Part shown: positions 14,741 through 28,329 of the stretch, one piece after another | Numbering within the stretch: position 1 is the stretch's first letter | Layout: each line of letters begins with the position of its first letter | Notes under the pieces: model-generated | Told to the model about the DNA's origin: nothing | The model's input: only the letters and a program-made list of their open reading frames with translations | Databases searched by the model: none | Assembly: GCA_017937135.1 (NCBI GenBank) | Contig: JAGBEE010000029.1 | Span: 1-41,125, forward strand | DNA: 41,125 nucleotides | From: Clostridia bacterium | GTDB taxonomy: Bacteria > Bacillota > Clostridia > Oscillospirales > CAG-272 | Direction: 5' to 3' | Program-made: the position numbers and the translations under genes

Positions 14741-14774
14741 AGCTAAAACCTCACAAAAGTATTTTAATAGTTAA

Positions 14775-14803
14775 ATAATATCATAAAGTTATTTACGTGT
14801 CAA
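14775..14803 (-). promoter_or_regulatory. Sigma-A promoter of the lrp-aminotransferase pair
   Basis: On minus, TTGACA (14803-14798), a 17-base spacer, then TATTAT (14780-14775). The -35 is a perfect match. The start codon is about 30 bases downstream of the predicted start site. Confidence 0.75.
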
Positions 14804-14838
14804 TTATTATAGATTAAAAAAGTCTAAAAACAATATAA

Positions 14839-15678
14839 TTAAGCCTTATTTCTGCCTTGAATATAATTCTTTAGCATTAAGAGCCAGTCTGTTTGAATAA
14901 AGTCTGCACCCTTGTCAATTAGCCAGCCCCAGCCCATATCTGGTGAGACAGTCAAGGAAATATCATCAGTATGATGTGCCGAAATAACATCTCTTTCGTT
15001 GTATATGATAGAGTTCATCCAAATCAAAAGACCCTGGTCGTGCATTTTTTTGATATATTCTTTACTTATGCAATCGTCGCTTTCCTTACCAAAAAGAATT
15101 TCAGTGCCGATTAAATTGATACCTTGGCTAAGGAGTCTTTCGGAGACATCGTCCTTACCCCAAATAAGAGGAACAAACATAAAGTCGGATGCAAACTCCT
15201 TAACATAATTAAGGCTTTTTTCATCGGTATTCGTTTTAACAATTACTTGCTTTTCAACTCCCGCCTTGCGAATTTCATTTGAAATTCCTTCAACATCAGT
15301 CCAAAACTTATCAACATTTATGTAAACCTTGTCCTTTAAAAGAGCGAAAACCTCACTAAGAGTAGGAACTTTATAGCTTGTAGCAACGGAGTCCTGATTT
15401 ACAAGATACATATTATCAATTTCCTCCGAGGCAAGGTCACAAATGCCCTTAGAGCTTCTTAAAAAAACGTGCTCCATGCCTGGATGAAATACGTAAAATT
15501 TGCCATCCTTTGATTTTGCAACGTCTATTTCAACAACGTCAGCACCCTGTGCTAATGCAATTTTGTAAGCAGCAATTGAGTTGCATGGAATATTTGCGCC
15601 ACATACACCTCTGTGCGCCACTAAAAACGGACTTCCTTTTTCCTTCCTGTTTTCAAAAATACTTTTCTCAAAATTCAT
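14839..15678 (-). CDS. Glycerophosphodiester phosphodiesterase (GDPD) family protein
   Basis: Cleaves glycerophosphodiesters to glycerol-3-phosphate and an alcohol. The 279-residue protein has the TIM-barrel GDPD signature: H22-R23 in AHRG, E50 and D52 in VEIDV, and H65 in the position of the second catalytic histidine. The usual ENT motif after HRG reads CNS here. There is no signal peptide or membrane segment, so it acts in the cytosol. It is preceded by a possible promoter and a cre-like site, consistent with control by carbon source. Confidence 0.87.
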   Translation of the reverse strand: MNFEKSIFENRKEKGSPFLVAHRGVCGANIPCNSIAAYKIALAQGADVVEIDVAKSKDGKFYVFHPGMEHVFLRSSKGICDLASEEIDNMYLVNQDSVATSYKVPTLSEVFALLKDKVYINVDKFWTDVEGISNEIRKAGVEKQVIVKTNTDEKSLNYVKEFASDFMFVPLIWGKDDVSERLLSQGINLIGTEILFGKESDDCISKEYIKKMHDQGLLIWMNSIIYNERDVISAHHTDDISLTVSPDMGWGWLIDKGADFIQTDWLLMLKNYIQGRNKA

Positions 15679-15738
15679 ATTAGTACCTCTTTAAAATAAA
15701 TCTGTATTTCATATACTCACCAAACCACATAAGTAAAA

Positions 15739-15752
15739 AGCAAGCGCTTTCT
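15739..15752. promoter_or_regulatory. Possible CcpA cre site
   Basis: On minus it reads AGAAAGCGCTTGCT, close to the catabolite-responsive element consensus TGWAARCGYTWNCW, with one mismatch at the first base. It sits about 60 bases before the GDPD start codon and about 30 bases downstream of the predicted transcription start, where CcpA would block elongation. This rests on a consensus match only. Confidence 0.35.
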
Positions 15753-15785
15753 AAACTTAGTAGCCAATATTAGCCTATTTATTGT

Positions 15786-15814
15786 ATTTTAACATAAAAG
15801 CATAAAAAATACAA
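15786..15814 (-). promoter_or_regulatory. Possible promoter of the GDPD gene
   Basis: On minus, TTGTAT (15814-15809), a 17-base spacer, then TAAAAT (15791-15786) with an upstream TG. The match is moderate. The rest of the 335-base gap 15679-16013 is AT-rich; apart from this, the cre-like site and the HAD promoter I see nothing there. Confidence 0.4.
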
Positions 15815-15953
15815 CAATAGATGTAAAATAAAAAAGCGCCCTAAGGACACAAGTCATTATTTAAGCTCATAAAAAATCAAGCCAAAAGCCACAAAATGAT
15901 TAAATATATTCACATATGAACATTTAATAATATAACAAAAGCCGATTTTACAC

Positions 15954-15982
15954 TTGAAAAATCCATAAAAACCTGCTATAAT
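15954..15982 (+). promoter_or_regulatory. Sigma-A promoter of the HAD gene
   Basis: TTGAAA (15954-15959), a 17-base spacer, then perfect TATAAT (15977-15982). The start codon is at 16014 with RBS CGAGGA. Confidence 0.75.
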
Positions 15983-16013
15983 TATTTTAGAAACGCTTTT
16001 ACGAGGAAAAAAT

Positions 16014-16625
16014 ATGAGCATAAAAAACATAGTATTTGATTTTGGTCAGGTTTTAGTTCATTATGAGCCTGAATATATGACAGGAGTATATGTTACAAGC
16101 GAAGCGGACAAGGCACTTTTACAGAAGGTAGTTTTTGACCGTCTTTATTGGGATAGACTTGACGCTGGCACAATAGATGACGGTGAGGTAATCTCAGAGT
16201 GCAAAAAAAGGCTTCCAGAGCACTTATGGGATGTAGCTGAGAAAATTTATTATAATTGGATATACAATATTCCCGAAGTGGAGGGAATGAGAGAGCTTAT
16301 TATTTACTTAAAGGATAATTACGACGTAAAGCTCTATCTTTTATCTAACATTTCAAAATATTTTGCAGAGCACAAGGGAGAGATTTCTATTTTATCATTA
16401 CTTGATAATTGTGTATTCTCAGGACCCTTAGGCATAGTAAAGCCGAATAAGGAAATTTTTGAATATCTATGTAACACATATTCACTAATACCAGGCGAGT
16501 GTATTTTTGTAGATGACAACACAGCTAACATAAATTCAGCAAATTCATTTGGCATCAACGCATACTTATTTGACGGCGATGTAGAAAGGCTGAAAAAATA
16601 CCTCGAAGAAGCATTAAAACAATAG
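16014..16625 (+). CDS. HAD-superfamily (IA) hydrolase
   Basis: A 203-residue HAD phosphatase. Motif I is FDFGQVLV, where the usual second aspartate of DxD is glycine; this occurs in the YihX/epoxide-hydrolase-like branch of HAD-IA. Motif II is LLSN, motif III the lysine in KPNKEIF, and motif IV VDDNTANINSA. An alpha-helical cap occupies roughly residues 15-85. Sugar-1-phosphate phosphatase activity is plausible for this branch but not shown. It is a single gene between its own promoter and terminator. Confidence 0.85.
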   Translation: MSIKNIVFDFGQVLVHYEPEYMTGVYVTSEADKALLQKVVFDRLYWDRLDAGTIDDGEVISECKKRLPEHLWDVAEKIYYNWIYNIPEVEGMRELIIYLKDNYDVKLYLLSNISKYFAEHKGEISILSLLDNCVFSGPLGIVKPNKEIFEYLCNTYSLIPGECIFVDDNTANINSANSFGINAYLFDGDVERLKKYLEEALKQ

Positions 16626-16634
16626 AATAAGACT

Positions 16635-16670
16635 ACAATTCCGACATTATTTTGTTGGAATTGTTTATTT
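16635..16670 (+). terminator. Intrinsic terminator after the HAD gene
   Basis: An inverted repeat ACAATTCC...GGAATTGT (16635-16642 with the T-rich right arm ending near 16664), followed by TTTATTTT. Confidence 0.65.
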
Positions 16671-16754: not shown

Positions 16755-16862
16755 ATAAATCCTTGCTTTGCAAGTCTTTGGCACTGCGTGCCTAGGATGC
16801 ATACGCATCCTGCGCTTCTTGAATCAGGTTATAAAAACGCACTTGCGAGCAAGCATTTTTTA
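16755..16862 (+). other. Hairpin-rich intergenic element, possible small RNA or leader
   Basis: Within about 100 bases there are three perfect short hairpins: CTTGC-TTT-GCAAG (16762-16774), GGCAC-TGC-GTGCC (16780-16792) and AGGATGC-ATAC-GCATCCT (16794-16811). A fourth hairpin, CTTG-CGAG-CAAG (16842-16853), is flanked by AAAAA and TTTTTT like a terminator. Just upstream is an extended -10, TGATATAAT (16740-16748), with only a poor -35. It could be a small RNA, an untranslated leader of the hdr operon, or a dispersed repeat element. Confidence 0.4.
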
Positions 16863-16866
16863 TTTA

Positions 16867-16875
16867 TGATATAAT
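16867..16875 (+). promoter_or_regulatory. Possible extended -10 promoter of the hdr operon
   Basis: TGATATAAT at 16867-16875 with no recognisable -35. It lies about 47 bases before the hdrB start codon. The same nine bases occur at 16740-16748. Confidence 0.4.
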
Positions 16876-16921: not shown

Positions 16922-17713
16922 ATGAAACTTAGTTATTTTCCAGGCTGTACTTTAAAAAATAAAGCAAAATCGCTTGATATCTACGCAAGAAAATCAAGCG
17001 AGCTTTTCGGTATTACCTTGGAAGAAATAGATAATTGGCAATGCTGTGGTGGAGTATATTCAACTGCAAAAAACGACGTTGCAACCAAGCTTGCCTCTGT
17101 GCGCGCCCTAAAGCAAGCATATGAAAAGGGACAGGCACTTGTGACTGTTTGCTCTGCGTGCCATAACGTAATAAAGCAAACAAACCATCTTATGAAAAAC
17201 GATACGGCAATTGCTAAGAAAATCGATAGATACATAAATGATGGCAGTATGTACACAGGACAAGCACAGGTATATCATTACTTAGAAATGCTACGTGACA
17301 TAGTTGGCTTTGACGAGATTAGAAAAAAGGTTGTAAATCCATTAAACGGCAAAAAAATAGGCGCATATTATGGCTGCTTACTATTAAGACCGAGCAGTGT
17401 AATGCAAATGGATAATCCCGAAAATCCAACAATAATGGAAGAGCTTATAAGCGCCCTCGGTGGACAGAGTATTATATACGCAAACAGAAATGAATGCTGT
17501 GGCGGCTATATTGCTATGGAAAGTGGCGAGCTTGCAAGAAAAAAGAGTAACCAAGTAATAGAAAATGCAAAAAAGGCAGGCGCTGAAATGATAATAACAG
17601 CATGCCCGCTTTGTCGCTACAATTTAATTAAAAACGGAAGCGATATACCAGTAGTTTATTTTACTGAGCTATTGGCACAGGCGCTTGGAATAAAGGGGGA
17701 TACAAATGAATAA
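16922..17713 (+). CDS. hdrB: Heterodisulfide reductase-like subunit B (HdrB)
   Basis: HdrB holds the noncubane [4Fe-4S] clusters that reduce disulfides, or pass electrons to a partner, in HdrABC complexes. The 263-residue protein has two CCG domains: C9, C41-C42-G-G, C77/C80, and the second C192-C193-G-G with C228/C231. I chose the ATG at 16922 (RBS GAGGT) over an in-frame ATG at 16886, because family members begin at MKLSYFPGC. It is the first gene of a ten-gene operon with gaps of at most 14 bases or small overlaps. No mtr, mcr or coenzyme M gene is near, so the substrate is not the methanogenic heterodisulfide. Confidence 0.88.
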   Translation: MKLSYFPGCTLKNKAKSLDIYARKSSELFGITLEEIDNWQCCGGVYSTAKNDVATKLASVRALKQAYEKGQALVTVCSACHNVIKQTNHLMKNDTAIAKKIDRYINDGSMYTGQAQVYHYLEMLRDIVGFDEIRKKVVNPLNGKKIGAYYGCLLLRPSSVMQMDNPENPTIMEELISALGGQSIIYANRNECCGGYIAMESGELARKKSNQVIENAKKAGAEMIITACPLCRYNLIKNGSDIPVVYFTELLAQALGIKGDTNE

Positions 17714-18092
17714 GGCGTATCCAACTGAGGAGTTACTTAGAATAAGTGGAGTAAACCCCAATAAATGTATGAAATGTGGAAAATGCTCAGCCACATGCCC
17801 GGCATACGATGAGATGGAATATCATCCTCATCAATTTGTAAGTATGGTAAATTCAGGGGACATAGAGCCACTTATGAATTCAGAGTCAATTTTCAAATGC
17901 CTATCATGCTTTGCGTGCGTTGATAGGTGTCCACGTGGTGTAGAGCCTGCTAAGCTAATAGAGGCAGTTAGAATAGCTGTAGTTAGAAAGCAGGGCAATA
18001 ACCACCTTTTAGCTGACGATGTGCCAAATATGCTTGATGATGAAATTCCTCAACAGGCAATAGTCAGTGCATTTAGAAAATATAGTAAGTAA
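17706..18092 (+). CDS. hdrC: Heterodisulfide reductase-like subunit C (HdrC)
   Basis: A small 128-residue electron-transfer subunit with two [4Fe-4S] ferredoxin motifs: C21-x2-C24-x2-C27-x3-C31-P, and C65-x2-C68-x2-C71-x3-C75-P. It links the flavin subunit HdrA with the CCG subunit HdrB. It overlaps hdrB by 8 bases and lies 14 bases before hdrA with RBS AAGGAGG. It is soluble; there is no membrane segment, and no HdrE/DsrM-type cytochrome in the operon. Confidence 0.88.
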   Translation: MNKAYPTEELLRISGVNPNKCMKCGKCSATCPAYDEMEYHPHQFVSMVNSGDIEPLMNSESIFKCLSCFACVDRCPRGVEPAKLIEAVRIAVVRKQGNNHLLADDVPNMLDDEIPQQAIVSAFRKYSK

Positions 18093-18106
18093 GGAGGAAG
18101 GGACAA

Positions 18107-20101
18107 ATGCAAAGAATAGGTGTTTTTGTATGCTGGTGTGGTAGCAATATTGCGAGCACAGTAGATGTTGAAAGAGTATCTGAGGCATTAAAAAATGAGC
18201 AAGGTGTTGTCTTTTCCACCAATTACCAATATATGTGCTCGCAGGCAGGACAGGATTTAATTAAGTCAGCAGTAAAGGAGCACAGGCTAACAGGAATAGT
18301 TGTATGCTCATGCTCTCCAAGAATGCACGAGGCAACCTTCCGTAAGGCAGCTCGCTCAGCGGGAATTAACCCTTATATGGTTGAAATTGCAAATATAAGA
18401 GAGCAATGCTCATGGGTACATAAGGACATTATAACGGGAACTGAAAAGGCGATAATTCTTGGCAAGGCGGCTATTGCAAAGGTTAATTTAAACGCACCCC
18501 TTATCCCAGGAGAATCACCTGTTACAAAGCGTGCGCTTGTAATAGGTGGTGGTATAGCAGGAATCCAAACTGCGCTTGATATAGCAGAAGCAGGGTTTTT
18601 AGTTGACATAGTTGAGAAGAAGCCAACCATAGGTGGAAAAATGGCTCAGCTTGACAAGACCTTCCCAACTCTTGACTGCTCAGCTTGTATTTTAACGCCC
18701 AAAATGGTTGACGTGGCACAGCACGAAAAAATCCGTATTTTTTCGTATAGCGAGGTAAGTAGCGTAAAGGGCTTTGTCGGTAATTTTGATGTAACTATAA
18801 AGAAAAAGGCGCGCTTCGTTAACGAGAATATTTGCACAGGCTGTGGCGCTTGTGTTGAAAAGTGCCCACAAAAGAAAATTCCAAACGAATTTAATCTTGG
18901 AATGGATAATCGTAGCGCAATTTATATACCATTTGCACAGGCTGTGCCAAAGGTAGCAACAATAGACCCAAATGCTTGTAATATGCTTAAAAATGGCAAA
19001 TGTGGACTGTGTGCAAGAGTGTGCACAGCAGGCGCTATTGACTATACGCAAAAGGATGAATATATTGAGGAAAAATATGGCGCAATAGTAGTTGCAACAG
19101 GCTTTAATCCTATCAGTATGGAAAAATTTGATGAGTACGCATACAGTCAGTCAAGGGATGTTATAACCTCGCTTGAATTTGAACGTCTTACGAATGCCGC
19201 AGGACCAACGGGTGGCAAGCTGCTTCGTCCATCTGATAACAAGCACCCCCATACTATTGTATTTGTACAATGTGTAGGCTCTCGTTGCTCAGTAGATAGC
19301 GAGAAGGGCAAGGAGTATTGCTCCAAAATTTGTTGCATGTACACAGCAAAGCACGCAATGCTTGTAAGAGATAAGTACCCCGATACAGAGGTATATGTAT
19401 TTTACATTGACGTAAGAACGCCGGGTAAAGCATTCGATGAGTTTTATCGTCGCGCAGTTGAGGAATATGGCGTTCATTACATAAAGGGTATGGTAGGAAA
19501 GGTTGTTCCCGAGGGTGAAAAGCTAAAGGTGCAAGCCTCTGACCTTATTGAAAATAAACAGCTTCATATAGATGCAGATTTAGTAGTATTAGCAGCAGCA
19601 ATTGAGCCTGATAAATCAGCAAGAGGCCTTGCTACTATGCTTACAGCAAGCATGGATACAAATGATTTCTTTACCGAGGCGCATCCAAAGCTTCGTCCCG
19701 TTGAAAGCCCAACTGCGGGAGTATTCCTCTCAGGCACATGCCAAGGACCAAAGGATATTCCCGAAACAGTATCGCAAGCAGGCGCAGCAGCCTCAAAGGT
19801 AATAGCACTGCTTAACAAGGATAAATTGCTTGGCAACCCCTGCGTAGCACACTCAAATGAAGAGATATGTAATGGTTGCTCTCAATGCGAAAGGGTATGC
19901 CCATATGGCGCAATTTCATATATAAATAAGGAATTTAAAATGCCAGACAGAAGCATTAAGACAAGAAGAATAGCAGTAGTTAATCCTGCTATTTGCCAGG
20001 GCTGTGGTGCTTGCACAGTTACTTGTCCCTCTGGCGCTATGGACTTGAAGGGCTTTACAAGCAAGCAAATAATGGCGGAGGTGGACGCAATATGCAGGTA
20101 A
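18107..20101 (+). CDS. hdrA: Heterodisulfide reductase-like flavoprotein subunit A (HdrA)
   Basis: HdrA is the FAD subunit that performs flavin-based electron bifurcation in HdrABC complexes. Over 664 residues it shows the N-terminal HdrA domain with CWCG near residue 9, a Rossmann FAD motif (V145-I-GGGIAG), and a Cys cluster (C191-S-A-C194 in FPTLDCSACILTPKM). Two mid-protein ferredoxin motifs are CTGCGACVEKCP and CGLCARVCTAG; two C-terminal ones are CNGCSQCERVCP and CQGCGACTVTCP. All expected clusters are present. Neighbouring FlxD and FlxA-like genes suggest the donor is NAD(P)H rather than H2 or formate. It overlaps the next gene by 10 bases. Confidence 0.92.
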   Translation: MQRIGVFVCWCGSNIASTVDVERVSEALKNEQGVVFSTNYQYMCSQAGQDLIKSAVKEHRLTGIVVCSCSPRMHEATFRKAARSAGINPYMVEIANIREQCSWVHKDIITGTEKAIILGKAAIAKVNLNAPLIPGESPVTKRALVIGGGIAGIQTALDIAEAGFLVDIVEKKPTIGGKMAQLDKTFPTLDCSACILTPKMVDVAQHEKIRIFSYSEVSSVKGFVGNFDVTIKKKARFVNENICTGCGACVEKCPQKKIPNEFNLGMDNRSAIYIPFAQAVPKVATIDPNACNMLKNGKCGLCARVCTAGAIDYTQKDEYIEEKYGAIVVATGFNPISMEKFDEYAYSQSRDVITSLEFERLTNAAGPTGGKLLRPSDNKHPHTIVFVQCVGSRCSVDSEKGKEYCSKICCMYTAKHAMLVRDKYPDTEVYVFYIDVRTPGKAFDEFYRRAVEEYGVHYIKGMVGKVVPEGEKLKVQASDLIENKQLHIDADLVVLAAAIEPDKSARGLATMLTASMDTNDFFTEAHPKLRPVESPTAGVFLSGTCQGPKDIPETVSQAGAAASKVIALLNKDKLLGNPCVAHSNEEICNGCSQCERVCPYGAISYINKEFKMPDRSIKTRRIAVVNPAICQGCGACTVTCPSGAMDLKGFTSKQIMAEVDAICR

Positions 20102-20526
20102 ACGAGTTTAAGCCACTAATAGTTGCATTTTGCTGTAATTGGTGCTCCTACGCAGGTGCTGACCTTGCAGGCAACAACCGTCTTAGCTATCCGGCAGACG
20201 TAAAAATAATTCGCGTGCCTTGCTCTTGTCGAGTTAACCCTATGTTTGTGCTTCGCGCATTTCAGAGAGGGGCAGACGGAGTCATAATTTGTGGATGTCA
20301 CCCAGGAGATTGTCACTACACCTCGGGAAACTATTATACACGTCGTAGAATGACACTTTTGTTTTCTATGCTCGACTACCTCGGCATAGAGAAGGAGCGC
20401 ACACGTGTAGAGTGGGTTTCAGCAGCTGAGGGTGCAAAATTTGCTTCTACAATGAATGATTTTGTAAGTAAAATAACACAGCTTGGTAAAAACAAGAGAT
20501 TGGAGGATTTAAGATGCAAAAAATAA
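20092..20526 (+). CDS. MvhD/FlxD-like [2Fe-2S] electron-transfer protein
   Basis: A 144-residue protein of the MvhD family, which connects the electron-donating module to HdrA. Conserved cysteines are C14, C15, C18, C44, C46 and the set C67-G-C69-H-P-G-D-C74-H. I chose the ATG at 20092 (RBS GGCGGAGG), overlapping the end of hdrA by 10 bases; reading further upstream in this frame only runs back into hdrA. No MvhA/MvhG hydrogenase genes are present, so this is the FlxD-type context. It overlaps the next gene by 13 bases. Confidence 0.88.
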   Translation: MQVNEFKPLIVAFCCNWCSYAGADLAGNNRLSYPADVKIIRVPCSCRVNPMFVLRAFQRGADGVIICGCHPGDCHYTSGNYYTRRRMTLLFSMLDYLGIEKERTRVEWVSAAEGAKFASTMNDFVSKITQLGKNKRLEDLRCKK

Positions 20527-21506
20527 GTCGTGATAAGCTAATAAAAAAGGCATCAAATCTTCTTAATAGTGGTATTGTAAGGTGCGTTCTTGGTTGGAAA
20601 AGAGGAGAATTTGACTACGATATTACCCCAAATGTCTTTACAACCGAGAAGGAGCTAATAGATGACTTTGTATGGAACGATTTTTGTGGAGCAAATCTAT
20701 CAAAATATCTTGTTTCCAAAACACAAGGCGTCGATGGAAAAATACTTGTATTTTTAAAGCCCTGTGATACATATAGCTTTAATCAGCTTTTAACCGAGCA
20801 TAGATTTGACAGAGAAAGGGCGTACGTAATAGCAGTGCCCTGTGAGGGAATGGCTGATATAAATAAAATCAAGCAAATCACAAACGAGGGAATTTCTTCA
20901 ATTGAATTTAACGAAGACACGCTATCTATTTCTACTCTTTATAATGAAGAGCCAATAAAAATCGCATACGACAGAGTGCTTAGCGAAAGATGCCTAAATT
21001 GCAAGAGCAAAAAGCACGTAGTCTATGATGAGCTTTTGGGAGATGATGGCGAGATTTTAGAATCAAATCGCTTTGACGAGGTTGAAAAAATCGAAAAAAT
21101 GTCAAGCGAGGAAAGATTTGAGTTTTGGCAAGGAGAGCTTTCTCGCTGTATTCGCTGTAATGCGTGCAGAGACGTATGTCCTGCTTGTACATGCGAAAAG
21201 TGCGTGTTTGACAATCCCGAATCAGGCGTAGAGAATAAAGCAAGCGCAAATAGCTTTGAGGAAAAGCTTTTCCATATAATAAGAGCATACCACGTTGCAG
21301 GGAGATGTACAGACTGTGGCGAATGCTCGCGCGTGTGTCCGCAAAATATTCCGCTTCACCTCTTGAACCGTAAATTTATAAAGGATATAAATGAATTTTA
21401 CGGTGAATTTCAAGCTGGCGAGAAAATAGGTATGCGCTCCCCCCTTATTGACTACACAACTGATGATATCGAGCCAAATGAGGCAGTTAACAGGAGGGAT
21501 AGCTGA
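20514..21506 (+). CDS. Iron-sulfur electron-transfer subunit, FlxC-like
   Basis: A 330-residue soluble protein. The N-terminal ~190 residues look like the FrhB/FdhB type of flavin/Fe-S protein (VFLKPCDTYSF, VIAVPCEG, and a cluster-like CLNC). The C-terminal half carries two [4Fe-4S] motifs, CIRCNACRDVCP with CTCEKC, and CTDCGECSRVCPQNIP. Position and domains match the 4Fe-4S subunits of FlxABCD of sulfate reducers. It probably carries electrons between the NAD(P)H-oxidising subunit and MvhD/HdrA. It overlaps the following gene by one base (TGATG). The exact subfamily name is uncertain. Confidence 0.75.
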   Translation: MQKISRDKLIKKASNLLNSGIVRCVLGWKRGEFDYDITPNVFTTEKELIDDFVWNDFCGANLSKYLVSKTQGVDGKILVFLKPCDTYSFNQLLTEHRFDRERAYVIAVPCEGMADINKIKQITNEGISSIEFNEDTLSISTLYNEEPIKIAYDRVLSERCLNCKSKKHVVYDELLGDDGEILESNRFDEVEKIEKMSSEERFEFWQGELSRCIRCNACRDVCPACTCEKCVFDNPESGVENKASANSFEEKLFHIIRAYHVAGRCTDCGECSRVCPQNIPLHLLNRKFIKDINEFYGEFQAGEKIGMRSPLIDYTTDDIEPNEAVNRRDS

Positions 21507-22528
21507 TGGTAAAATTCTCTTGCGAAAAAATTGATTTGGTTTTTGCTGAAATTGCAAAAACGGCAGCATTATATATCCCATCAAATGATAAAAATAACAA
21601 GGCTGTATTTACAAAATGGCAAAAGGGAACGAAGCTTTGTGATTCTCACAATACACAAATAGGGCCAAAGGATTTGTTCTTTCCTCAAACAGAGGATTTA
21701 ATGGCATTTAAAGCCTCAAATAAGAAAATTGAAATTATCGACACTCGCAAAGAGAGTGAGGATTTTGTCATTTTCGGTGTACGTGCGTGTGATGTAAAAA
21801 GCCTTGAAATATTAGATAGAGTGTTTTTAAGCGAGCCACGCGATAGCTATTATGCTATGCGTCGTGAGCACGGTATAATAATATCCTTAGCCTGTACAAG
21901 ACCATCTGAAGCCTGCTTTTGCACTACCTTTGGTATAGCACCAAGCGAGCCAGGAGCCGATATTTCAGTATGGAAAATTAACAATGAATTTTTCTGGCAG
22001 GCAAACACTAAAAGGGGCGAGGAGCTTCTTTTAAAAATTGAGCATTTCACAACTCCGGCAGAGCCAAGCGAGGTAGAGGGAGAAAAGCAAAGAATAAGCG
22101 TGCTTATGAAAAGGCTTCCACTTGCTAATTTAAGCACAAATGGCTTTGGTAAGGGCAAAACAAACGAGCTTTTTGAAAGAGAAGAATGGGCAAAATTAAG
22201 CGAGGCGTGTCTTGGCTGTGGAACCTGTACCTTTGTTTGTCCTACCTGTCAATGCTATGATATAAAGGACTTTAACACAGGCAACGGAGTAATTCGTTAT
22301 AGATGCTGGGACTCGTGTATGTATTCCGATTTTACAAAAATGGCACATGGAAACAACAGAAACACAAGAAAGGAGCGATTCCGTCAGCGCTTTATGCACA
22401 AGTTAGTTTATTTTCCCGAAAATAATAATGGCTTGTTTGGATGCGTAGGCTGTGGTCGTTGTATTTCAAAATGCCCCGTTTCTATGAACATAGTTAAGGT
22501 AATGAAAAAGCTTGGAGGTAATGTATGA
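21506..22528 (+). CDS. Sulfhydrogenase beta / AsrA-like Fe-S subunit (FlxB-like)
   Basis: A 340-residue protein. Its N-terminal region resembles the beta subunit of cytosolic sulfhydrogenase and anaerobic sulfite reductase subunit A (FFPQTEDLMAF, IFGVRACDVKSLEILD, ACTRPSEACFC). Two C-terminal [4Fe-4S] motifs follow: CLGCGTCTFVCPTCQC and CVGCGRCISKCPVSMN. These proteins partner with an FAD/NAD(P)H subunit, which here is the next gene, overlapping by 4 bases. No catalytic sulfite reductase or Ni-Fe hydrogenase subunit is present, supporting a Flx role. Confidence 0.8.
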   Translation: MVKFSCEKIDLVFAEIAKTAALYIPSNDKNNKAVFTKWQKGTKLCDSHNTQIGPKDLFFPQTEDLMAFKASNKKIEIIDTRKESEDFVIFGVRACDVKSLEILDRVFLSEPRDSYYAMRREHGIIISLACTRPSEACFCTTFGIAPSEPGADISVWKINNEFFWQANTKRGEELLLKIEHFTTPAEPSEVEGEKQRISVLMKRLPLANLSTNGFGKGKTNELFEREEWAKLSEACLGCGTCTFVCPTCQCYDIKDFNTGNGVIRYRCWDSCMYSDFTKMAHGNNRNTRKERFRQRFMHKLVYFPENNNGLFGCVGCGRCISKCPVSMNIVKVMKKLGGNV

Positions 22529-23358
22529 ATATCTATGAGGAAGCCCTGATACCTAAAATAGGTGTAGTAACAGATATACGTATAGATACCCCTGATATAA
22601 AAACCTTTAGAGTAGTAACACCCGATGGCAAAAAGGCTTTTGAGCACCAGCCTGGACAATGTGCAATGCTCTCAATCCCAGGTGTTGGAGAGGCTATGTT
22701 TTCAATTACCTCATCACCAACAAACAAGGACTTTATGGAGTTTTCTATAAAGAAATGTGGTTGCGTTACCGAGTGGCTACACAGCTTAGAGCTTGGGCAA
22801 GAAATAACGATAAGAGGCCCGTATGGCAAGCCATTTCCTGTTGACACAGACTTTTCGGGTAAAAGCCTGCTTTTCATAGCAGGTGGAGTAGGACTTGCCC
22901 CCCTTCGCTCCGTTATAAACTACTGTCGTCATTATCGTGACAGATATGGAAAAATAGATATAGTTTATGGCTCAAGAAGTAAGGAGGATTTGCTTGACTA
23001 CAAGGAAATAGTAGAGGAATGGGCAAATGATAATGGTGTTAACGTTTACTTAACCATAGATAACCCACAAAAAGAGTGGGACGGGCACGTTGGATTTGTC
23101 CCAAATTATGTTAAGGAGCTTAATTTTGACAGGGACAAAATCGCAGTATTGTGTGGACCACCAATTATGATTAAGTTTACCCTTGACGCATTACAGGCAC
23201 TTGGCTTTGACAAAAAGCAAATTTATACAACCTTAGAGCTTCGTATGAAATGTGGAATAGGAAAATGTGGCAGATGCAACGTAGGCGCAAAATACGTTTG
23301 CAAGGATGGACCAGTATTCCGTTGTGACGAGCTCAGCGAATTACCAGACGAATATTAA
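22525..23358 (+). CDS. FAD/NAD(P)H-binding oxidoreductase subunit (FlxA-like)
   Basis: A 277-residue ferredoxin-NADP reductase-like protein of the PyrK/AsrB/HydG group. The FAD domain includes MFSITSSP and RGPYGKPF. The NAD(P) domain has LFIAGGVGLAPLRS and CGPPIMI. A C-terminal [2Fe-2S] set is MKCGIGKCGRCN...C. It is the entry point for NADH or NADPH electrons in the complex, by analogy with FlxA; which nucleotide is used cannot be told from sequence. RBS GGAGG lies inside the end of the previous gene. Confidence 0.85.
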   Translation: MNIYEEALIPKIGVVTDIRIDTPDIKTFRVVTPDGKKAFEHQPGQCAMLSIPGVGEAMFSITSSPTNKDFMEFSIKKCGCVTEWLHSLELGQEITIRGPYGKPFPVDTDFSGKSLLFIAGGVGLAPLRSVINYCRHYRDRYGKIDIVYGSRSKEDLLDYKEIVEEWANDNGVNVYLTIDNPQKEWDGHVGFVPNYVKELNFDRDKIAVLCGPPIMIKFTLDALQALGFDKKQIYTTLELRMKCGIGKCGRCNVGAKYVCKDGPVFRCDELSELPDEY

Positions 23359-23370
23359 AGGAGAGATAAC

Positions 23371-24048
23371 ATGGAGAATAATATGGTAAATATTTATCTT
23401 TTTGGAAAGAAATATGAAGTACCCGAAAATTTAACAATTATGAGCGCCATGGAATATGCAGGTTATCAACTGGTAAGAGGCTGTGGCTGTCGTAATGGCT
23501 TTTGTGGTGCTTGCGCTACAATTTATCGTATTATGGGCAAAAGAGAATTAAAAACCTGTCTTGCTTGTCAGACAAAGGTTGAAGATAATATGTATATTGC
23601 AACCCTACCGTTTTTCCCACTTGTAAAGCAGGCATACGATATCGAAAAAATACCAACAACTGAGGCAGTTATGATGCAGCTTTATCCCGAAATATACGCA
23701 TGTATAGGCTGTAATGCTTGCACAAAAAGCTGCACACAGGGACTTAACGTAATGCAATATATTGCATACGCACAAAGAGGAGAATTTGACAAGTGTGCAG
23801 AGGAATCCTTTGACTGCGTAATGTGTGGAGTATGCTCAGCAAGATGTCCTGCTGGAATTTCACATCCACAGGTAGCAATGCTTGCACGTAGAATAAATGG
23901 CAAATACTTAGCTCCTGGCTCGGAGCATTTAAACAAGCGTGTTAAGGAAATTGAAAATGGCGATTTTAAGGAGCTTATAGAAGCTCTTATGGAAAAGCCT
24001 ATCGAGGAACTAAAGGAACTATATAACACGCGCGAAATTGAGAAATAA
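23371..24048 (+). CDS. Fumarate reductase/TfrB-like iron-sulfur subunit
   Basis: A 225-residue protein with an N-terminal plant-type [2Fe-2S] domain (CGCRNGFCGACA ... CLAC, residues ~37-70) and two C-terminal clusters, CIGCNACTKSC and CVMCGVCSARCP. This is the SdhB/FrdB layout, but both C-terminal motifs are four-cysteine and there is no quinone-site partner. It resembles the N-terminal part of methanogen thiol:fumarate reductase TfrB; the HdrB-like C-terminal part of TfrB would here be supplied by hdrB of the same operon. RBS AAAGGAGAG; 12 bases on either side to its neighbours. Confidence 0.75.
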   Translation: MENNMVNIYLFGKKYEVPENLTIMSAMEYAGYQLVRGCGCRNGFCGACATIYRIMGKRELKTCLACQTKVEDNMYIATLPFFPLVKQAYDIEKIPTTEAVMMQLYPEIYACIGCNACTKSCTQGLNVMQYIAYAQRGEFDKCAEESFDCVMCGVCSARCPAGISHPQVAMLARRINGKYLAPGSEHLNKRVKEIENGDFKELIEALMEKPIEELKELYNTREIEK

Positions 24049-24060
24049 GGGAGGGACAAT

Positions 24061-25665
24061 ATGTATTCTGAAAAGCTTCAAGCCTCTTTAAGATTAGTTG
24101 AAGAGGCAAGAGAACAAAATATAATATTTGAGCCTGACCGAATGAGCGCAAAGCAAAAGGAGGAGCTCTTATTAACCTATCATCCCGACTACAAGGCAGA
24201 CGAATTTGACACCTTAAAAATAGGGCCAAACAAGGGTGAAAGGGTTCCAAAGGAGCTTTGTGCAATATTACAGGCGCACAGTAGAATAAATGCAAATAGT
24301 GTTGATTTAACAAAGCCCGATTACGATACAGACGTGCTTATAATAGGTGGTGGCGGAGCAGGCTCAGCTGCCGCAATTGAAGCAAATGAGGCTGGCGCTA
24401 AGGTAATGATAGTTACCAAGCTACGTATAGGCGACTCAAACACTATAATGGCTGAGGGTGGAATACAAGCTGCCGATAAGGAAAACGATTCCCCAGCCAT
24501 ACACTTTATAGATGCCTTTGGGGGCGGACATTTTGCAGCCAAAAGAGAGCTTTTGTCAAAGCTTGTTTGCGATGCGCCCGAGGCTATAAAATGGCTCAGT
24601 AATTTAGGTGTTGAGTTCGACAAGGAAAAGGACGGCACAATGATTACAACCCATGGTGGTGGTACCTCTCGCAAGCGTATGCACGCTGCAAAGGACTACT
24701 CGGGTGCTGAGATTATGAGAACTCTGCGTGATGAGGTTTTCAACCGTCAAATACCCGTAATCGATTTCACCTCGGCAATTGAGCTCATTTTAGATGAAGA
24801 GGGCAAGGCAGCAGGCGCAGTTTTGATGAATATGGAAACAAAGGAGCTTCTTGTTGCAAGAGCAAAAACAGTTATTATCGCAACAGGTGGAGCAGGTAGA
24901 ATGCACTATCAGGGCTTCCCAACCTCAAATCACTATGGCGCAACTGCTGATGGCTTAGTTCTTGGCTATCGCGTAGGAGCAAGGCTTTTATATGCTGAAA
25001 CGCTACAATATCATCCAACAGGAGTAGCCTACCCTGAACAAATTTTTGGAGCTCTCGTTACCGAAAAGGTTCGTTCTCTTGGCGCAAAGCTCATAAATAA
25101 AAACGGTGAGGTATTTATGCACCCCCTCGAAACACGTGATGTAGCTGCTGCATCTATCATAAGAGAATGTAACGAAAGAGGTAACGGAGTAGAGACGGAT
25201 AGCTCCTTAGGTGTATGGTTAGATACACCAATGATAGAAAAAATAGGTGGAGAGGGAACAATAGAAAAGAGAATACCTGCAATGATGCGTATGTTTGGTA
25301 AATATGGCATAGATATTCGCAAGGAGCCAATTTTAGTTTATCCCACACTTCATTATCAAAATGGTGGCTTAGATATAACACCAGATGGTATGACTACCAA
25401 TGTAAAAAATCTGTTTGTAGCAGGTGAGGCAGTCGGTGGCATACATGGTAAAAATAGACTTATGGGTAACTCACTTCTTGATATCATTGTATTTGGTCGT
25501 AGTGCAGGAATTAATGCTGCAGAAATCGCAAAAAATACAACCGTAGGAAGACTTACCCTTGAGCACGTGGACAGATTTGAGAAGGAAATAAGCGAGGCAG
25601 GAATAAAGACAGAGCTTCGTTCTCCCAAGCTTCTTCCAAACTATACAAATAAAAAAGATATATAA
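24061..25665 (+). CDS. Fumarate reductase/TfrA-like flavoprotein
   Basis: A 534-residue flavoprotein of the SdhA/FrdA/NadB superfamily. A ~95-residue N-terminal extension precedes the FAD Rossmann motif IIGGGGAGSAAA. The substrate-site residues of fumarate reductases have clear counterparts: R338 (VRSLGAKLIN), H431 (TLHYQNGG) and R466 (GKNRLMGNSLL). The histidine that carries covalent FAD in membrane-bound SdhA/FrdA is asparagine here (S126-N127-T128, MAEGG follows). FAD is thus probably bound non-covalently, as in NadB. Fumarate reduction is the favoured role because of the FrdB-like partner 12 bases upstream; L-aspartate oxidase is less likely, since no nadA or nadC is near. No frdC/frdD anchor gene is present. 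Confidence 0.78.
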   Translation: MYSEKLQASLRLVEEAREQNIIFEPDRMSAKQKEELLLTYHPDYKADEFDTLKIGPNKGERVPKELCAILQAHSRINANSVDLTKPDYDTDVLIIGGGGAGSAAAIEANEAGAKVMIVTKLRIGDSNTIMAEGGIQAADKENDSPAIHFIDAFGGGHFAAKRELLSKLVCDAPEAIKWLSNLGVEFDKEKDGTMITTHGGGTSRKRMHAAKDYSGAEIMRTLRDEVFNRQIPVIDFTSAIELILDEEGKAAGAVLMNMETKELLVARAKTVIIATGGAGRMHYQGFPTSNHYGATADGLVLGYRVGARLLYAETLQYHPTGVAYPEQIFGALVTEKVRSLGAKLINKNGEVFMHPLETRDVAAASIIRECNERGNGVETDSSLGVWLDTPMIEKIGGEGTIEKRIPAMMRMFGKYGIDIRKEPILVYPTLHYQNGGLDITPDGMTTNVKNLFVAGEAVGGIHGKNRLMGNSLLDIIVFGRSAGINAAEIAKNTTVGRLTLEHVDRFEKEISEAGIKTELRSPKLLPNYTNKKDI

Positions 25666-25678
25666 CCGAGGTTAAAAA

Positions 25679-26005
25679 ATGACTATTGAAATGCTAACAG
25701 ACCTCTTTGAGGCACTAACAATTTTCTGCTTTGGTCTTTCATGGCCAATTTCCATTCGCAAATCATACGTAGCAAGAACAGCAAAGGGCAAGAGCTTATT
25801 TTTTGAGGTATTTCTACTTGTTGGATATGCCTTCGGTATAGCTCGTAAGATTATTCAAGTATCCGTTCTTGGAGCAACAGGCTTCATCTTCTATCTTAGC
25901 TTTTTCTTCTACGTGCTTAACTTTATTGAGATTTCTATTGATGTTGCACTCTATTTCCGCAACACAAAGCTTGATAAAGCAAGAGATGCAGGACAAAATG
26001 TATAA
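25679..26005 (+). CDS. Small three-helix membrane protein, PQ-loop/SemiSWEET-like
   Basis: A 108-residue hydrophobic protein with three predicted membrane helices (about 7-24, 40-60 and 66-94). Its first helix ends in the motif GLSWPISIRKSY followed by KGKS, resembling a PQ-loop half-transporter. It is the last gene of the operon, 13 bases after the flavoprotein and directly before a terminator, so it is co-transcribed. Its role beside soluble redox subunits is unknown. It has no histidine or quinone motif that would mark it as an Frd anchor, but membrane tethering of the complex cannot be excluded. Confidence 0.6.
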   Translation: MTIEMLTDLFEALTIFCFGLSWPISIRKSYVARTAKGKSLFFEVFLLVGYAFGIARKIIQVSVLGATGFIFYLSFFFYVLNFIEISIDVALYFRNTKLDKARDAGQNV

Positions 26006-26013: not shown

Positions 26014-26042
26014 CAAAAAGGTGTCGTAATGACACCTTTTTT
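26014..26042 (+). terminator. Bidirectional terminator, end of hdr-frd operon
   Basis: The stem AAAAAGGTGTC (26014-26024) pairs with GACACCTTTTT, with loop GTAAT. The T-run on plus serves the operon; the A-run on the left serves the converging CHR gene. Confidence 0.9.
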
Positions 26043-26607
26043 AATATAAAATTACTCCAAGAGCTCCAGAGATTATAATAAGTAAAATAAGTGAAAAGCC
26101 TTTTTTTCTTATTTGTGTATAGGCTGTAGCGATGATAGCAATTACTGCTAAAATAATTAAGGCTCTATAATCAAAGCTAAAAGAGCTGTGAATAGTCTTA
26201 ATTGAGAATAGCTGACTTAAAAGCATAGTTATAGTAACAGAAATAATAAGACCAACAATAGCAGGATGCATTGCTGTAAGAGTGGCTTTAACACCTGCAT
26301 ATTTAAGTAGATTTTTAGCAATCGAAGCGATAATAAGAATAATTATAAACGACGGTAAAACCACACCCAGTGTCGATAAAAGAGCACCAAGCATACCTGC
26401 TTGTGAAGAACCAACAAAGGTTGCGATGTTTACAGCAATAGGACCGGGCGTTGATTCAGCAACTGCAATAATATTAAGCAGCTCATTTTCAGTGAGCCAG
26501 CCTGAGGAAACGCACGTATCGTGTATTAAGGAAATCATACCAAGACCTCCGCCAAACGATAGGGCTCCTATCTTGAAAAATGATAAAAACAACTCAAGGT
26601 AAATCAT
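26041..26607 (-). CDS. Half-size CHR-family transporter (second of pair)
   Basis: A 188-residue membrane protein of the short CHR (chromate ion transporter) family. The signature GALSFGGGLGMISLI near the N-terminus and AESTPGPIAVNIATFVG in the middle match one half of ChrA. About five hydrophobic helices follow. Short CHR proteins work as heterodimers of two adjacent genes, as seen here, with 4 bases of overlap. Chromate efflux is the named activity of the family, but the natural substrate of the short forms is not settled. Confidence 0.88.
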   Translation of the reverse strand: MIYLELFLSFFKIGALSFGGGLGMISLIHDTCVSSGWLTENELLNIIAVAESTPGPIAVNIATFVGSSQAGMLGALLSTLGVVLPSFIIILIIASIAKNLLKYAGVKATLTAMHPAIVGLIISVTITMLLSQLFSIKTIHSSFSFDYRALIILAVIAIIATAYTQIRKKGFSLILLIIISGALGVILY

Positions 26608-27191
26608 TCCGACTTATCCCCCTTCGAGCTATTTTTACTATTTATATAACCTATAAGATAAATAATAAGACCCAATAAGCCACTTATTAAAATATAGAAA
26701 ATTGCAGAAAAGCTAATTGCAAAAATACTAAATAGAACAGACAGAACAACTGTTAACACAACAATTGTTATATTAAAAACGGATTTTTTTATGTTTTTTA
26801 GCATCATAATTGATGCTGACAAAATTACAAAAATAATACCAACCTGTATTCCCTTAAACGCAGAGGCAACCCATTCAATTTCAAGGAACTGATTAAAAAA
26901 CAGAGAAATAACATAGATGATTACAAATGATGGTATGCACATTCCAATTGTTCCCAAAAGAGCACCAAAAAAACCGCCAACCTTATATCCAATATATGTT
27001 GAACAGTTAATAGCAATAGGACCTGGTGTAGATTCCGCAATGGCTACGAGGTCCATAAACTCGTCAGAGCTAAGATATTTTCTTTTAGCAACAAATTCGT
27101 TTTCAAGCAGCGCAATCATTGCATATCCACCACCAAAGGTAAACAAGCCGATTTTAAACATTGTAATAAATAAGCTAATGTATTTTTTCAT
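26604..27191 (-). CDS. Half-size CHR-family transporter (first of pair)
   Basis: A 195-residue membrane protein with the same CHR signature as its downstream partner: GLFTFGGGYAMIALLE and AESTPGPIAINCSTYIG. The two proteins together equal one full-length ChrA. It starts 11 bases after the end of the MBL-fold gene, so the three genes form one minus-strand operon. The C-terminal tail is polar and lysine-rich (NSKNSSKGDKSE) and likely cytosolic. Confidence 0.88.
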   Translation of the reverse strand: MKKYISLFITMFKIGLFTFGGGYAMIALLENEFVAKRKYLSSDEFMDLVAIAESTPGPIAINCSTYIGYKVGGFFGALLGTIGMCIPSFVIIYVISLFFNQFLEIEWVASAFKGIQVGIIFVILSASIMMLKNIKKSVFNITIVVLTVVLSVLFSIFAISFSAIFYILISGLLGLIIYLIGYINSKNSSKGDKSE

Positions 27192-27202
27192 TGTATATAG
27201 AG

Positions 27203-27979
27203 CTATATTTCAATCACCTGACCACTTGAAATATAGTGTAGCTCCTTCATATTATTCTTCATAAATTCATATTGATTTATCCCTGTGCAGTGACAGGTGT
27301 AAAATACTGTATTAAGATTTTGTAAATATTCCGAATAGCTAAGAAGAGTATTATCAAGAGGTAATTTAGAAAAATGAAAGCCACCAATAATATAGTCAGC
27401 CTCAAACCAGGAGGCAATATTTAATATCCCCTTGTGTGAGCAGCCACTTATTAAAACTTTTTTGTTATCCTCTTCAATAAGCAAATATTGCTCGTGCCTG
27501 AAATCGTCTGGTAAATAGCTATCGTTTTCTAATATAGTAAGACCAAACGAGCCTAAGTTAAACTCTCGTTTTTTATCATTGCAAGAAAAAAGAGTCAATC
27601 CTGTGTCGATTTTTAATATATCATCAACAAAAATCAAACGATTGTTATTAACCAAGGATGTATCAAGCCCAATATACTTTTTGCATCCATTATAATGTGG
27701 CTCAAAGGCATATCTGCCCAAATAAACAGGCGATATAGAGTTAATCTCTAAAAATGCTTCAAGTCCTCCACCATGGTCGTAGTGACCGTGAGAAAGAATT
27801 GCAATATCAACTTGGCTTAAATCTATGCCAAGCTTTTTTGCATTCTTTATAAAGCTATCACCTTGTCCCATATCAAAAAGAATATTGTGTCCCCCTGCTT
27901 GTATATAAAGCGAAAGCCCATGCTCGCACAAAAAGTCCCCGTTATAAGACGTATTTTCTATTAAACAACTAATCCTCAT
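27203..27979 (-). CDS. MBL-fold metal-dependent hydrolase (COG1237-like)
   Basis: A 258-residue metallo-beta-lactamase-fold protein with the metal motif H-G-H-Y-D-H-G-G-G, a later SGCSHKGILNI, and a C-terminal YTCHCTGINQYEF. This pattern fits the group that includes the ribofuranosylaminobenzene phosphate synthase-like MBL proteins; the reaction in bacteria is unknown. I chose the ATG at 27979 (AGGT upstream); an in-frame TTG at 27985 would add two residues. It is first in the operon with the CHR pair. Confidence 0.82.
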   Translation of the reverse strand: MRISCLIENTSYNGDFLCEHGLSLYIQAGGHNILFDMGQGDSFIKNAKKLGIDLSQVDIAILSHGHYDHGGGLEAFLEINSISPVYLGRYAFEPHYNGCKKYIGLDTSLVNNNRLIFVDDILKIDTGLTLFSCNDKKREFNLGSFGLTILENDSYLPDDFRHEQYLLIEEDNKKVLISGCSHKGILNIASWFEADYIIGGFHFSKLPLDNTLLSYSEYLQNLNTVFYTCHCTGINQYEFMKNNMKELHYISSGQVIEI

Positions 27980-28047
27980 AATCAAACCTACATAAAATTA
28001 AAATATTAAAACTTGAACATCCTACCAATTCACTTAATCATATTGTA

Positions 28048-28056
28048 ATTATAACA
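28048..28056 (-). promoter_or_regulatory. Possible extended -10 promoter of the MBL-CHR operon
   Basis: On minus, TGTTATAAT (28056-28048), a perfect -10 with an upstream TG but no good -35. It lies about 69 bases before the MBL start codon. Confidence 0.4.
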
Positions 28057-28159
28057 TAAAAACAAACAACAGCATCCACAATAAATTTTTATTATATATT
28101 GAAAAGCAATAGGTATTATTATATAATAAAATAAAGATGTTGCGAAAATATCCAAAAAC

Positions 28160-28183
28160 AAAAAACCGCTAATGCGGTTTTTT
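28160..28183 (-). terminator. Terminator hairpin of the tracrRNA
   Basis: CCGC-ATTA-GCGG flanked by AAAAAA and TTTTTT. It is palindromic, so it also ends transcripts arriving from the left on plus. Confidence 0.9.
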
Positions 28184-28268: not shown

Positions 28269-28277
28269 AATTAGATT
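28249..28277 (+). promoter_or_regulatory. Weak candidate promoter of cas9
   Basis: TTGTCT (28249-28254), 17 bases, TAGATT (28272-28277): four of six matches in each box. If real, it lies inside the anti-repeat DNA and opposes the tracrRNA promoter. No better cas9 promoter was seen in 28184-28329. Confidence 0.25.
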
Positions 28278-28303: not shown

Positions 28304-28329
28304 TACTAAATTTGAAAGAAGAGGTCATT

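What the first reader, a model, noticed from the sequence alone, without database searches (positions are those of the whole stretch)
16922..26005. Hdr-Flx-Frd operon: candidate electron-bifurcating soluble fumarate reductase
Ten genes with overlaps or gaps of at most 14 bases combine three modules: FlxABCD-like NAD(P)H oxidation, HdrABC bifurcation, and an FrdAB/TfrAB-like pair. Known: HdrABC with FlxABCD oxidises NADH in sulfate reducers, and TfrAB in methanogens joins an SdhA/SdhB-like part to HdrB-like domains. Inference: here fumarate takes the high-potential electrons while ferredoxin takes the low-potential ones, which would save energy without a membrane enzyme. No dsrC, hydrogenase, formate dehydrogenase or frdC/D lies in the operon. 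I cannot say whether this exact set has been described.
Basis: partly seen in the sequence, partly recalled or inferred. Interest (0 to 1): 0.8.

Follow-up and report, generated by a model that had tools for sequence, protein, structure and literature searches.

The report
Flx-Hdr-linked soluble fumarate reductase operon
A bacterium related to gut Clostridia carries nine electron-transfer genes, already proposed as a unit in one cultured species, that probably reduce fumarate to succinate with NADH while also charging up ferredoxin.

Summary
Ten same-strand genes lie at 16922-26005 with gaps of at most 14 bases: hdrB-hdrC-hdrA-flxD-flxC-flxB-flxA-frdB-frdA plus a small membrane protein. The first nine are a real unit: in this order in 61 of 61 titled genome loci with enough upstream DNA, and in Ilyobacter polytropus. 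The tenth is optional. Fumarate as substrate is well supported: elsewhere the unit sits beside class II fumarase and an LDH-like malate dehydrogenase, class I fumarase, or aspartase. FrdA keeps the catalytic residues of fumarate reductase, lacks the aspartate-oxidase glutamate and the covalent-FAD histidine, and forms its own clade. HdrA keeps the lysine/glutamate pair linked to bifurcation. Bifurcation itself is inference, not measured. As a kind it is not new: seven Flx-Hdr genes followed by FrdAB were described in Pseudoclostridium thermosuccinogenes (2020 paper, citing a 2019 preprint) with the same proposal. What I add: breadth, residue evidence, and modularity (elsewhere FrdAB also occurs without Hdr-Flx). 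Oddities: frdA was not found in 28 same-genus genomes, and in the 94%-complete host assembly I found no fumarase, aspartase, ATP-PEPCK, RnfD/NqrB-type subunit or [NiFe] hydrogenase.

The parts
16843..16870 (+). promoter-like site upstream of hdrB; a terminator-like hairpin after the preceding gene lies at 16635-16664
   Evidence: consensus scan only, sequence read; 40 promoter-like sites against 25.9 in shuffles of the region, so weak evidence
16922..17713 (+). hdrB: two non-cubane [4Fe-4S] (CCG) motifs, 263 aa
   Evidence: PDB HdrB 8rvv_B E 1.4e-40; nine of the ten motif cysteines 81/81, Cys9 80/81
17706..18092 (+). hdrC: 2x[4Fe-4S]
   Evidence: 8 cysteines 84/84
18107..20101 (+). hdrA: presumed bifurcating flavoprotein; K415 and E359 equal K409 and E356 of Methanothermococcus HdrA
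   Evidence: PDB 5odc_A E 7.2e-202; both residues 86/86; their role from PMC12054007 passages
20092..20526 (+). flxD (MvhD/FlpD family)
   Evidence: PF02662 E 7.7e-56
20514..21506 (+). flxC: Fe-S protein, C-terminal part similar to FdhB of Hdr-formate dehydrogenase complexes
   Evidence: PDB 7bkb_E E 8e-22
21506..22528 (+). flxB: sulfhydrogenase-beta-like
   Evidence: PDB 9nez_B E 1.4e-44
22525..23358 (+). flxA: FAD / NAD(P)H-binding, [2Fe-2S], sulfhydrogenase-gamma-like; presumed entry of electrons
   Evidence: PDB 9nez_C E 1.3e-57
23371..24048 (+). frdB-like: [2Fe-2S] plus two [4Fe-4S] motifs; no [3Fe-4S] motif
   Evidence: motif cysteines in 98-99 of 99 sequences and alignment with E. coli FrdB/SdhB
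24061..25665 (+). frdA-like flavoprotein: 88-residue N-terminal extension, no C-terminal domain
   Evidence: residues and tree
25679..26005 (+). small hydrophobic protein (108 aa), optional; sits where most relatives have an AspT-family transporter
   Evidence: no family found

Best explanation
The nine genes encode a soluble NAD(P)H-dependent fumarate reductase. FlxA takes a hydride from NAD(P)H; FlxB, FlxC and FlxD pass electrons to the HdrA flavin; HdrA splits them. The high-potential electrons go through HdrC and HdrB (two non-cubane clusters) to FrdB and then to the non-covalent FAD of FrdA, which reduces fumarate to succinate. The low-potential electrons reduce ferredoxin: 2 NADH + fumarate + Fd(ox) -> 2 NAD+ + succinate + Fd(red). 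FrdB, HdrC and HdrB match successive parts of the fused TfrB of methanogens, so HdrB/HdrC are the likely docking partner of FrdB. Shown: gene set, order, conservation, residues. Inferred: complex formation, direction, NADH rather than NADPH, ferredoxin coupling.
For: Fixed nine-gene order. Fumarate context: among 102 operon loci, on the same strand, class II fumarase in 64 (in all 64 directly upstream of hdrB, gap at most 221 bases), an LDH-like malate dehydrogenase in 63, AspT-family transporter in 76, PEP carboxykinase in 7, class I fumarase in 10; aspartase upstream in Ilyobacter. FrdA catalytic residues H318, T334, E335, R359, H431, R466 in 102/102. NadB-type E121 absent and the family a separate clade, support 100. 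HdrA K415/E359 86/86, the pair proposed to separate bifurcating from non-bifurcating HdrA (PMC12054007, passages). Window proteins hit successive parts of the TfrB profile: FrdB 19-93, HdrC 134-220, HdrB 415-487. FrdA and HdrA pairwise distances correlate 0.96 over 80 loci that hold all nine proteins, 0.74 among close pairs (no control gene). Free energy estimate -49 to -18 kJ/mol, with ferredoxin potentials entered from memory. Published proposal and about 4-fold induction of the homologous-looking 'succinate operon' under CO2 limitation, not significant for all subunits (PMC7282089, passages).
Against: No activity data here, and none seen in the listings of eight paper searches. Outside the class one search gave 39 FrdA matches in 38 genomes; of 20 stretches that I fetched from these, only 2 hold the full set, so FrdAB does not need this donor. 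The window's operon lacks the adjacent mdh-fumC and transporter, and no fumarase, aspartase or ATP-PEPCK was found in its genome. N434 replaces a methionine that E. coli FrdA and SdhA both have in the substrate loop, so substrate specificity is not certain. The TfrB profile hits are far below its cut-off, and the stretch hit by HdrC is also hit by FlxC, so part of that match is general Fe-S similarity. The 80 titled loci are the closest ones, so their uniformity is partly relatedness.
Confidence: 0.72

Rival explanations
1. Flx-Hdr and FrdAB are a fumarate reductase without ferredoxin coupling: a plain NAD(P)H:fumarate oxidoreductase wired through Hdr clusters.
For: FrdAB is a module that occurs with other partners outside the class; in the host neither an RnfD/NqrB-type subunit nor a [NiFe] hydrogenase was found to harvest ferredoxin by ion pumping.
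Against: HdrA keeps the K/E pair, and its ferredoxin-domain cysteines and C389/C405/C409/C410 are 86/86, though a few other cysteines vary; a seven-subunit route would be costly for a plain NADH oxidase (inference); an [FeFe] hydrogenase that could use ferredoxin is present.
Confidence: 0.15
2. HdrB reduces a disulfide (thiol carrier), as proposed in sulfate reducers, and FrdAB reduces fumarate with the resulting thiol or by a separate route; the genes are only co-regulated, not one complex.
For: HdrB has both non-cubane cluster motifs in 81 sequences; methanogen TfrAB uses thiols (recalled); Hdr/flox in Desulfovibrio is proposed to reduce a heterodisulfide such as DsrC (PMC4215793, passages).
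Against: No dsrC or thiol-carrier gene in the operon; FrdB lacks the HdrB-like part that TfrB has; the host has no other HdrB-type CCG domain.
Confidence: 0.08
3. The complex runs in reverse: succinate oxidation driven by reduced ferredoxin (confurcation).
For: Such complexes are reversible in principle.
Against: The covalent-FAD histidine, recalled to be needed for succinate oxidation in E. coli Frd, is Asn in 101 of 102; neighbours in relatives form an oxaloacetate-to-succinate branch, with PEPCK in some and a transporter in many.
Confidence: 0.03
4. FrdA is an L-aspartate oxidase or acts on another fumarate-like acid.
For: NCBIfam NadB models match (267 bits against a cut-off of 453); N434 and H198 are family-specific in the comparison made; a divergent relative (56%, L215) lies next to an MmgE/PrpD gene.
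Against: Separate clade from labelled NadB, E121 absent; the host has another protein that passes one NadB model (577 over 472) though not another (411 under 453); fumarate enzymes next door in relatives.
Confidence: 0.02

Closest known systems
'Succinate operon' of Pseudoclostridium thermosuccinogenes (PMC7282089, passages read; cites Koendjbiharie and van Kranenburg, Preprints 2019, not read)
   Same: Seven Flx-Hdr genes followed by two fumarate reductase genes, then a hypothetical gene called a potential succinic acid transporter; same proposed coupling of succinate formation to ferredoxin reduction
   Different: There a fumarase gene is part of the operon; in the window none is. Sequence identity between the two was not tested (no named record at hand).
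tfrAB + flxABCD-hdrABC (+ korABCD) in reverse TCA clusters of tubeworm symbionts and Thioflavicoccus (PMC6315080, PMC11636981, passages read)
   Same: A Tfr-like fumarate reductase interspersed with Flx-Hdr, with the idea of direct electron transfer
   Different: Linked there to carbon fixation and an OGOR; a succinate branch in the relatives here. Not compared by sequence.
TfrAB thiol:fumarate reductase of methanogens
   Same: Best curated match of FrdA (TfrA, 350 bits); FrdB, HdrC and HdrB hit parts of TfrB
   Different: TfrB is one fused protein; FrdA is far below the TfrA cut-off (718 bits)
FlxABCD-HdrABC (Hdr/flox) of sulfate reducers (Desulfovibrio)
   Same: A seven-gene Hdr-Flx set by name (PMC4215793, passages); not compared by sequence
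   Different: No fumarate reductase genes in the set; proposed acceptor there is a heterodisulfide such as DsrC
Quinol:fumarate reductase FrdABCD (E. coli)
   Same: FrdA catalytic residues
   Different: No membrane anchors in the operon, no [3Fe-4S] motif, no covalent-FAD histidine, no C-terminal FrdA domain

Membership tests
Flx-Hdr-linked fumarate reductase as proposed for P. thermosuccinogenes | Seven Flx-Hdr genes directly followed by frdB/frdA-like genes | tested here: met
   against the gene list in PMC7282089
Flx-Hdr-linked fumarate reductase as proposed for P. thermosuccinogenes | Association with a fumarate-forming enzyme | tested here: inconclusive
   class II fumarase in 64 of 102 loci and class I in 10, not in the window or, by the searches made, its genome
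Flx-Hdr-linked fumarate reductase as proposed for P. thermosuccinogenes | Ferredoxin reduction coupled to fumarate reduction | not testable with these tools
   needs enzyme assay
Bifurcating HdrABC | HdrA lysine and glutamate at the flavin (K409/E356) | tested here: met
   K415, E359 in 86/86; role per PMC12054007
Bifurcating HdrABC | Two non-cubane cluster motifs in HdrB | tested here: met
Bifurcating HdrABC | Over the curated score of a named NCBIfam Hdr equivalog | tested here: not met
   HdrA 789.7 vs 1100 bits, HdrB 153 vs 345, HdrC 59 vs 160; those models are named for CoB-CoM enzymes, and the HdrA2 model includes the MvhD part (flxD hits its end)
Thiol:fumarate reductase TfrAB | TfrA above curated score | tested here: not met
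   350 vs 718 bits
Thiol:fumarate reductase TfrAB | TfrB with fused HdrC/HdrB-like part | tested here: not met
   FrdB 225 aa, no CCG domain
Quinol:fumarate reductase | Membrane anchor subunits next to frdAB | tested here: not met
   none recognised in the operon; the tenth gene is a membrane protein of no known family and is optional
Quinol:fumarate reductase | [3Fe-4S] site in FrdB | tested here: not met
   C152 present, giving a four-cysteine motif
Quinol:fumarate reductase | Catalytic His/Arg/Thr/Glu set in FrdA | tested here: met
L-aspartate oxidase | Glutamate E121 (role recalled) and NadB clade | tested here: not met
   the E. coli NadB E121 column reads G or H here depending on the alignment

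The most novel reading that the evidence does not exclude
FrdAB is a distinct, quinone-free class of soluble fumarate reductase (non-covalent FAD, one [2Fe-2S] and two [4Fe-4S]) that evolution plugs into different electron-splitting or electron-supply modules: Flx-Hdr, HdrA-MvhD, HdrBC alone, or none. The Flx-Hdr version is a major succinate-forming, ferredoxin-charging enzyme of animal-gut Clostridia. In the window's species it was gained by horizontal transfer and works as a sink for fumarate taken up or released by ArgH/PurB, since no fumarase or aspartase was found.
Probability: 0.4. Interest if true: 0.68.

Novelty: new member of a known kind. Interest (0 to 1): 0.45.

Why it matters
If fumarate really pulls NADH-driven ferredoxin reduction, these Clostridia gain reduced ferredoxin from succinate fermentation without membranes or quinones, which would change energy and hydrogen budgets for gut bacteria of this group (45 of the 80 record titles name a herbivore gut site) and for bio-succinate production. 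The proposal has been in print since 2019-2020; I found no biochemistry for it in the held library (eight searches). Ilyobacter polytropus DSM 2926 carries the full set, so it is directly testable.

Tried and rejected
Mis-binned contig: the window is the whole contig C41, so I checked. A flank gene (LivK, 39265-40518) has relatives of 43-80% identity in 23 of 28 same-genus genomes, the five closest all same-genus; the chrA-chrA-MBL order is shared with a same-genus contig (L222); tetranucleotide profiles of the two flanks correlate 0.984 and 0.965 with nine own stretches sampled. Rejected. The operon itself (correlation 0.948, GC 0.411) lies at the edge of, but within, the range of those own stretches (0.947-0.991, GC 0.355-0.414), so composition gives no clear sign of transfer.

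Empty site: searching the neighbouring chromate transporter in 57 relatives (26 with a match) gave no contig with both flanking genes adjacent and the operon absent, so transfer is inferred from patchy presence only.

L-aspartate oxidase: rejected by tree and residue. TfrAB membership: rejected by score and domain layout. No TfrA sequence was available for the tree, so nearness to TfrA rests on profile scores alone.

'Malate dehydrogenase' next to fumC: NCBIfam scores the L047 copy as L-lactate dehydrogenase (349 vs cut-off 339; 334 vs 304) at least as well as malate dehydrogenase (283.2 vs 283). The specificity residue (role recalled) is Arg in all 46 of 63 hits that my motif pattern caught; 17 escaped the pattern, L047 probably among them, whose printed sequence reads RKAGQSR. 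I call it LDH-like malate dehydrogenase.

Tenth gene: no Pfam match at a meaningful E-value for 13 members, only chance-level PDB hits. A resemblance to SemiSWEET/PQ-loop proteins is recalled and untested. Of 89 loci with >=1.7 kb downstream, the first recognised gene after frdA is AspT-type in 65, this small gene in 8, class I fumarase in 3, other in 13; 13 further loci were too short. That fumarase figure is an undercount of the script: with every match counted it is 6 within 1 kb. In three loci both AspT and the small gene occur.

Rfam: no match in the window at gathering score.

Full report
OBSERVATION. Family searches give HdrB, HdrC, HdrA, MvhD/FlpD, two Fe-S proteins, a FAD/NAD(P)-binding protein, an SdhB/FrdB-like and an SdhA/FrdA-like protein. 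Solved relatives: HdrA 5odc (E 7.2e-202), HdrB 8rvv (1.4e-40), FlxC like FdhB of an Fdh-Hdr complex, 7bkb (8e-22), FlxB/FlxA like sulfhydrogenase beta/gamma 9nez, FrdA best 7d6v SdhA (2.5e-64), FrdB only weak hits, RnfC and SdhB first.

CONSERVATION. FrdA relatives at 70-84% occur in five of 23 sampled genomes of other families of the same order, in 54 of 391 sampled genomes of the class, the window's own included, and at 49-63% in 38 of 398 genomes of the phylum sample apart from the window's own. Two same-order genomes share contig lengths with titled records there (G044 with L053, 'Clostridia bacterium'; G053 with L061, 'Oscillospiraceae bacterium'), which is why I place the host in the Clostridia. 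In the 80, all 61 loci with at least 7.3 kb upstream hold the nine genes in the window's order; of the 19 with less upstream sequence one still shows all nine. Of 16 further loci (Ilyobacter and 15 that I chose from the 54 class hits), all hold the nine, one (L160) with frdBA first.

SUBSTRATE. In 102 operon loci (window, 5 order relatives, 80 titled, Ilyobacter, 15 class) the same strand holds class II fumarase in 64, always directly upstream of hdrB with at most 221 bases between, LDH-like malate dehydrogenase in 63, AspT-family transporter in 76, PEP carboxykinase in 7 (profile checks; transporter family) and class I fumarase in 10. The closest relative, L047, reads mdh-fumC-hdrBCA-flxDCBA-frdBA-small protein-pck on one strand. 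Ilyobacter polytropus has aspartase upstream and an aspartate aminotransferase-family gene downstream; outside the class L206 has an aspartase-like gene (48% to E. coli AspA) and L209 a DcuB-like gene next to a frdBA-hdrBCA-flxDCBA set. Class II fumarase and aspartase share a superfamily; class I fumarase is unrelated. Three ways to make fumarate next to one unit is the strongest evidence for fumarate. The window itself has none of them.

ACTIVE SITE. Against E. coli FrdA, SdhA and NadB the six catalytic positions are invariant in 102 sequences. The covalent-FAD histidine is Asn in 101, His in 1. The NadB E121 column is not Glu. In a 45-sequence tree the 16 family members are one clade (support 100), apart from a 23-member clade that holds the four labelled NadB and from the four labelled Sdh/Frd. 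Family-specific residues in this comparison: N434 in the substrate loop (Met in E. coli Frd/Sdh), H198, C370. FrdB has four-cysteine motifs at both C-terminal clusters, so no [3Fe-4S] motif. HdrA K415/E359 match the pair proposed to mark bifurcating HdrA.

MODULARITY. Outside the class there are 39 FrdA matches in 38 genomes. Of 20 stretches that I fetched from these, 2 hold FrdAB with full Hdr-Flx (L206, L209), 3 hold it with HdrA, HdrB and MvhD but no recognisable FlxA or FlxB (L202, L203, L205; FlxC-like hits there are only 21-23%; L202 also has 2-oxoacid:ferredoxin oxidoreductase genes), 1 with HdrB/HdrC only (L216), and 14 show no convincing Hdr gene in the stretch, one of these on a contig of 8.8 kb (L210) and one with a weak HdrC-like hit at 26% (L219). 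Neighbours there include pyruvate carboxylase (L201; L204 by the same start of sequence), succinyl-CoA synthetase (L214) and class I fumarase with malic enzyme (L207). FrdAB is thus a portable soluble unit; Flx-Hdr is one of its donors.

HOST. None of 28 same-genus genomes has a close frdA (10 of them at least 90% complete by the rounded figures); 12 have only matches of 29-34%, which fall in the NadB clade. Absence of the rest of the operon there was not searched. The window's contig belongs to the genus, so gain by transfer is likely but inferred. In the 93.7% complete assembly the Lyase_1 family gives only two genes, which I read from neighbours and sequence as ArgH and PurB; class I fumarase, ATP-PEPCK, RnfD/NqrB and [NiFe] hydrogenase searches were empty; one [FeFe] hydrogenase with a HydB-like gene beside it is present. 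So fumarate would come from uptake or from ArgH/PurB, and ferredoxin might go to hydrogen. Absence in an incomplete assembly is not proof.

PRIOR ART. PMC7282089 (passages) names a 'succinate operon' in P. thermosuccinogenes with fumarate hydratase, seven Flx-Hdr genes, two fumarate reductase genes and a hypothetical gene, up about 4-fold under CO2 limitation (not significant for all subunits), and says that the coupling to ferredoxin was proposed before, citing a 2019 preprint that I could not read. PMC6315080 and PMC11636981 (passages) suggest Flx-Hdr feeding thiol:fumarate reductase in symbionts. Searches for further description or biochemistry; listings only, apart from passages of PMC5861303, PMC8578096, PMC12054007, PMC4215793 and PMC6037941, which gave no such enzyme.

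VERDICT. Real, conserved, most likely a Flx-Hdr-driven soluble fumarate reductase with ferredoxin coupling (0.72 for the whole mechanism; about 0.9 for fumarate reductase alone). New member of a known, as far as I found biochemically unproven, kind.

Noticed in passing
28333-35490: Type II-A CRISPR-Cas locus: Cas9 (1312 aa) and Csn2 by Pfam, two ORFs between them at the usual cas1/cas2 places (not tested), then an array with about 66-base spacing and a repeat containing GTTTGAGAGTAGTGTAA.
   Followed up: partly
25679-26005: Small conserved membrane protein that takes the place after frdA where 65 of 89 relatives have an AspT-family transporter; possibly involved in dicarboxylate export, family unknown.
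   Followed up: partly
L201:8278-14236, L204:9017-14818, L214:6678-11152, L202:6013-17592: FrdAB of the same family next to pyruvate carboxylase, succinyl-CoA synthetase, or 2-oxoacid:ferredoxin oxidoreductase with HdrA: different electron partners elsewhere in the phylum.
   Followed up: partly
G531 (L214, L215): A one-contig genome has two FrdA copies about 90 kb apart, one without a recognisable frdB and beside an MmgE/PrpD gene; it may act on another acid.
   Followed up: no
1-16625 and 26041-40518: Flanks: BspA-type LRR protein, AddA- and AddB-like helicase/nucleases, GyrB-like topoisomerase, deaminase, aminotransferase with AsnC-type regulator, paired chromate transporters, branched-chain amino acid type ABC transporter.
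   Followed up: no
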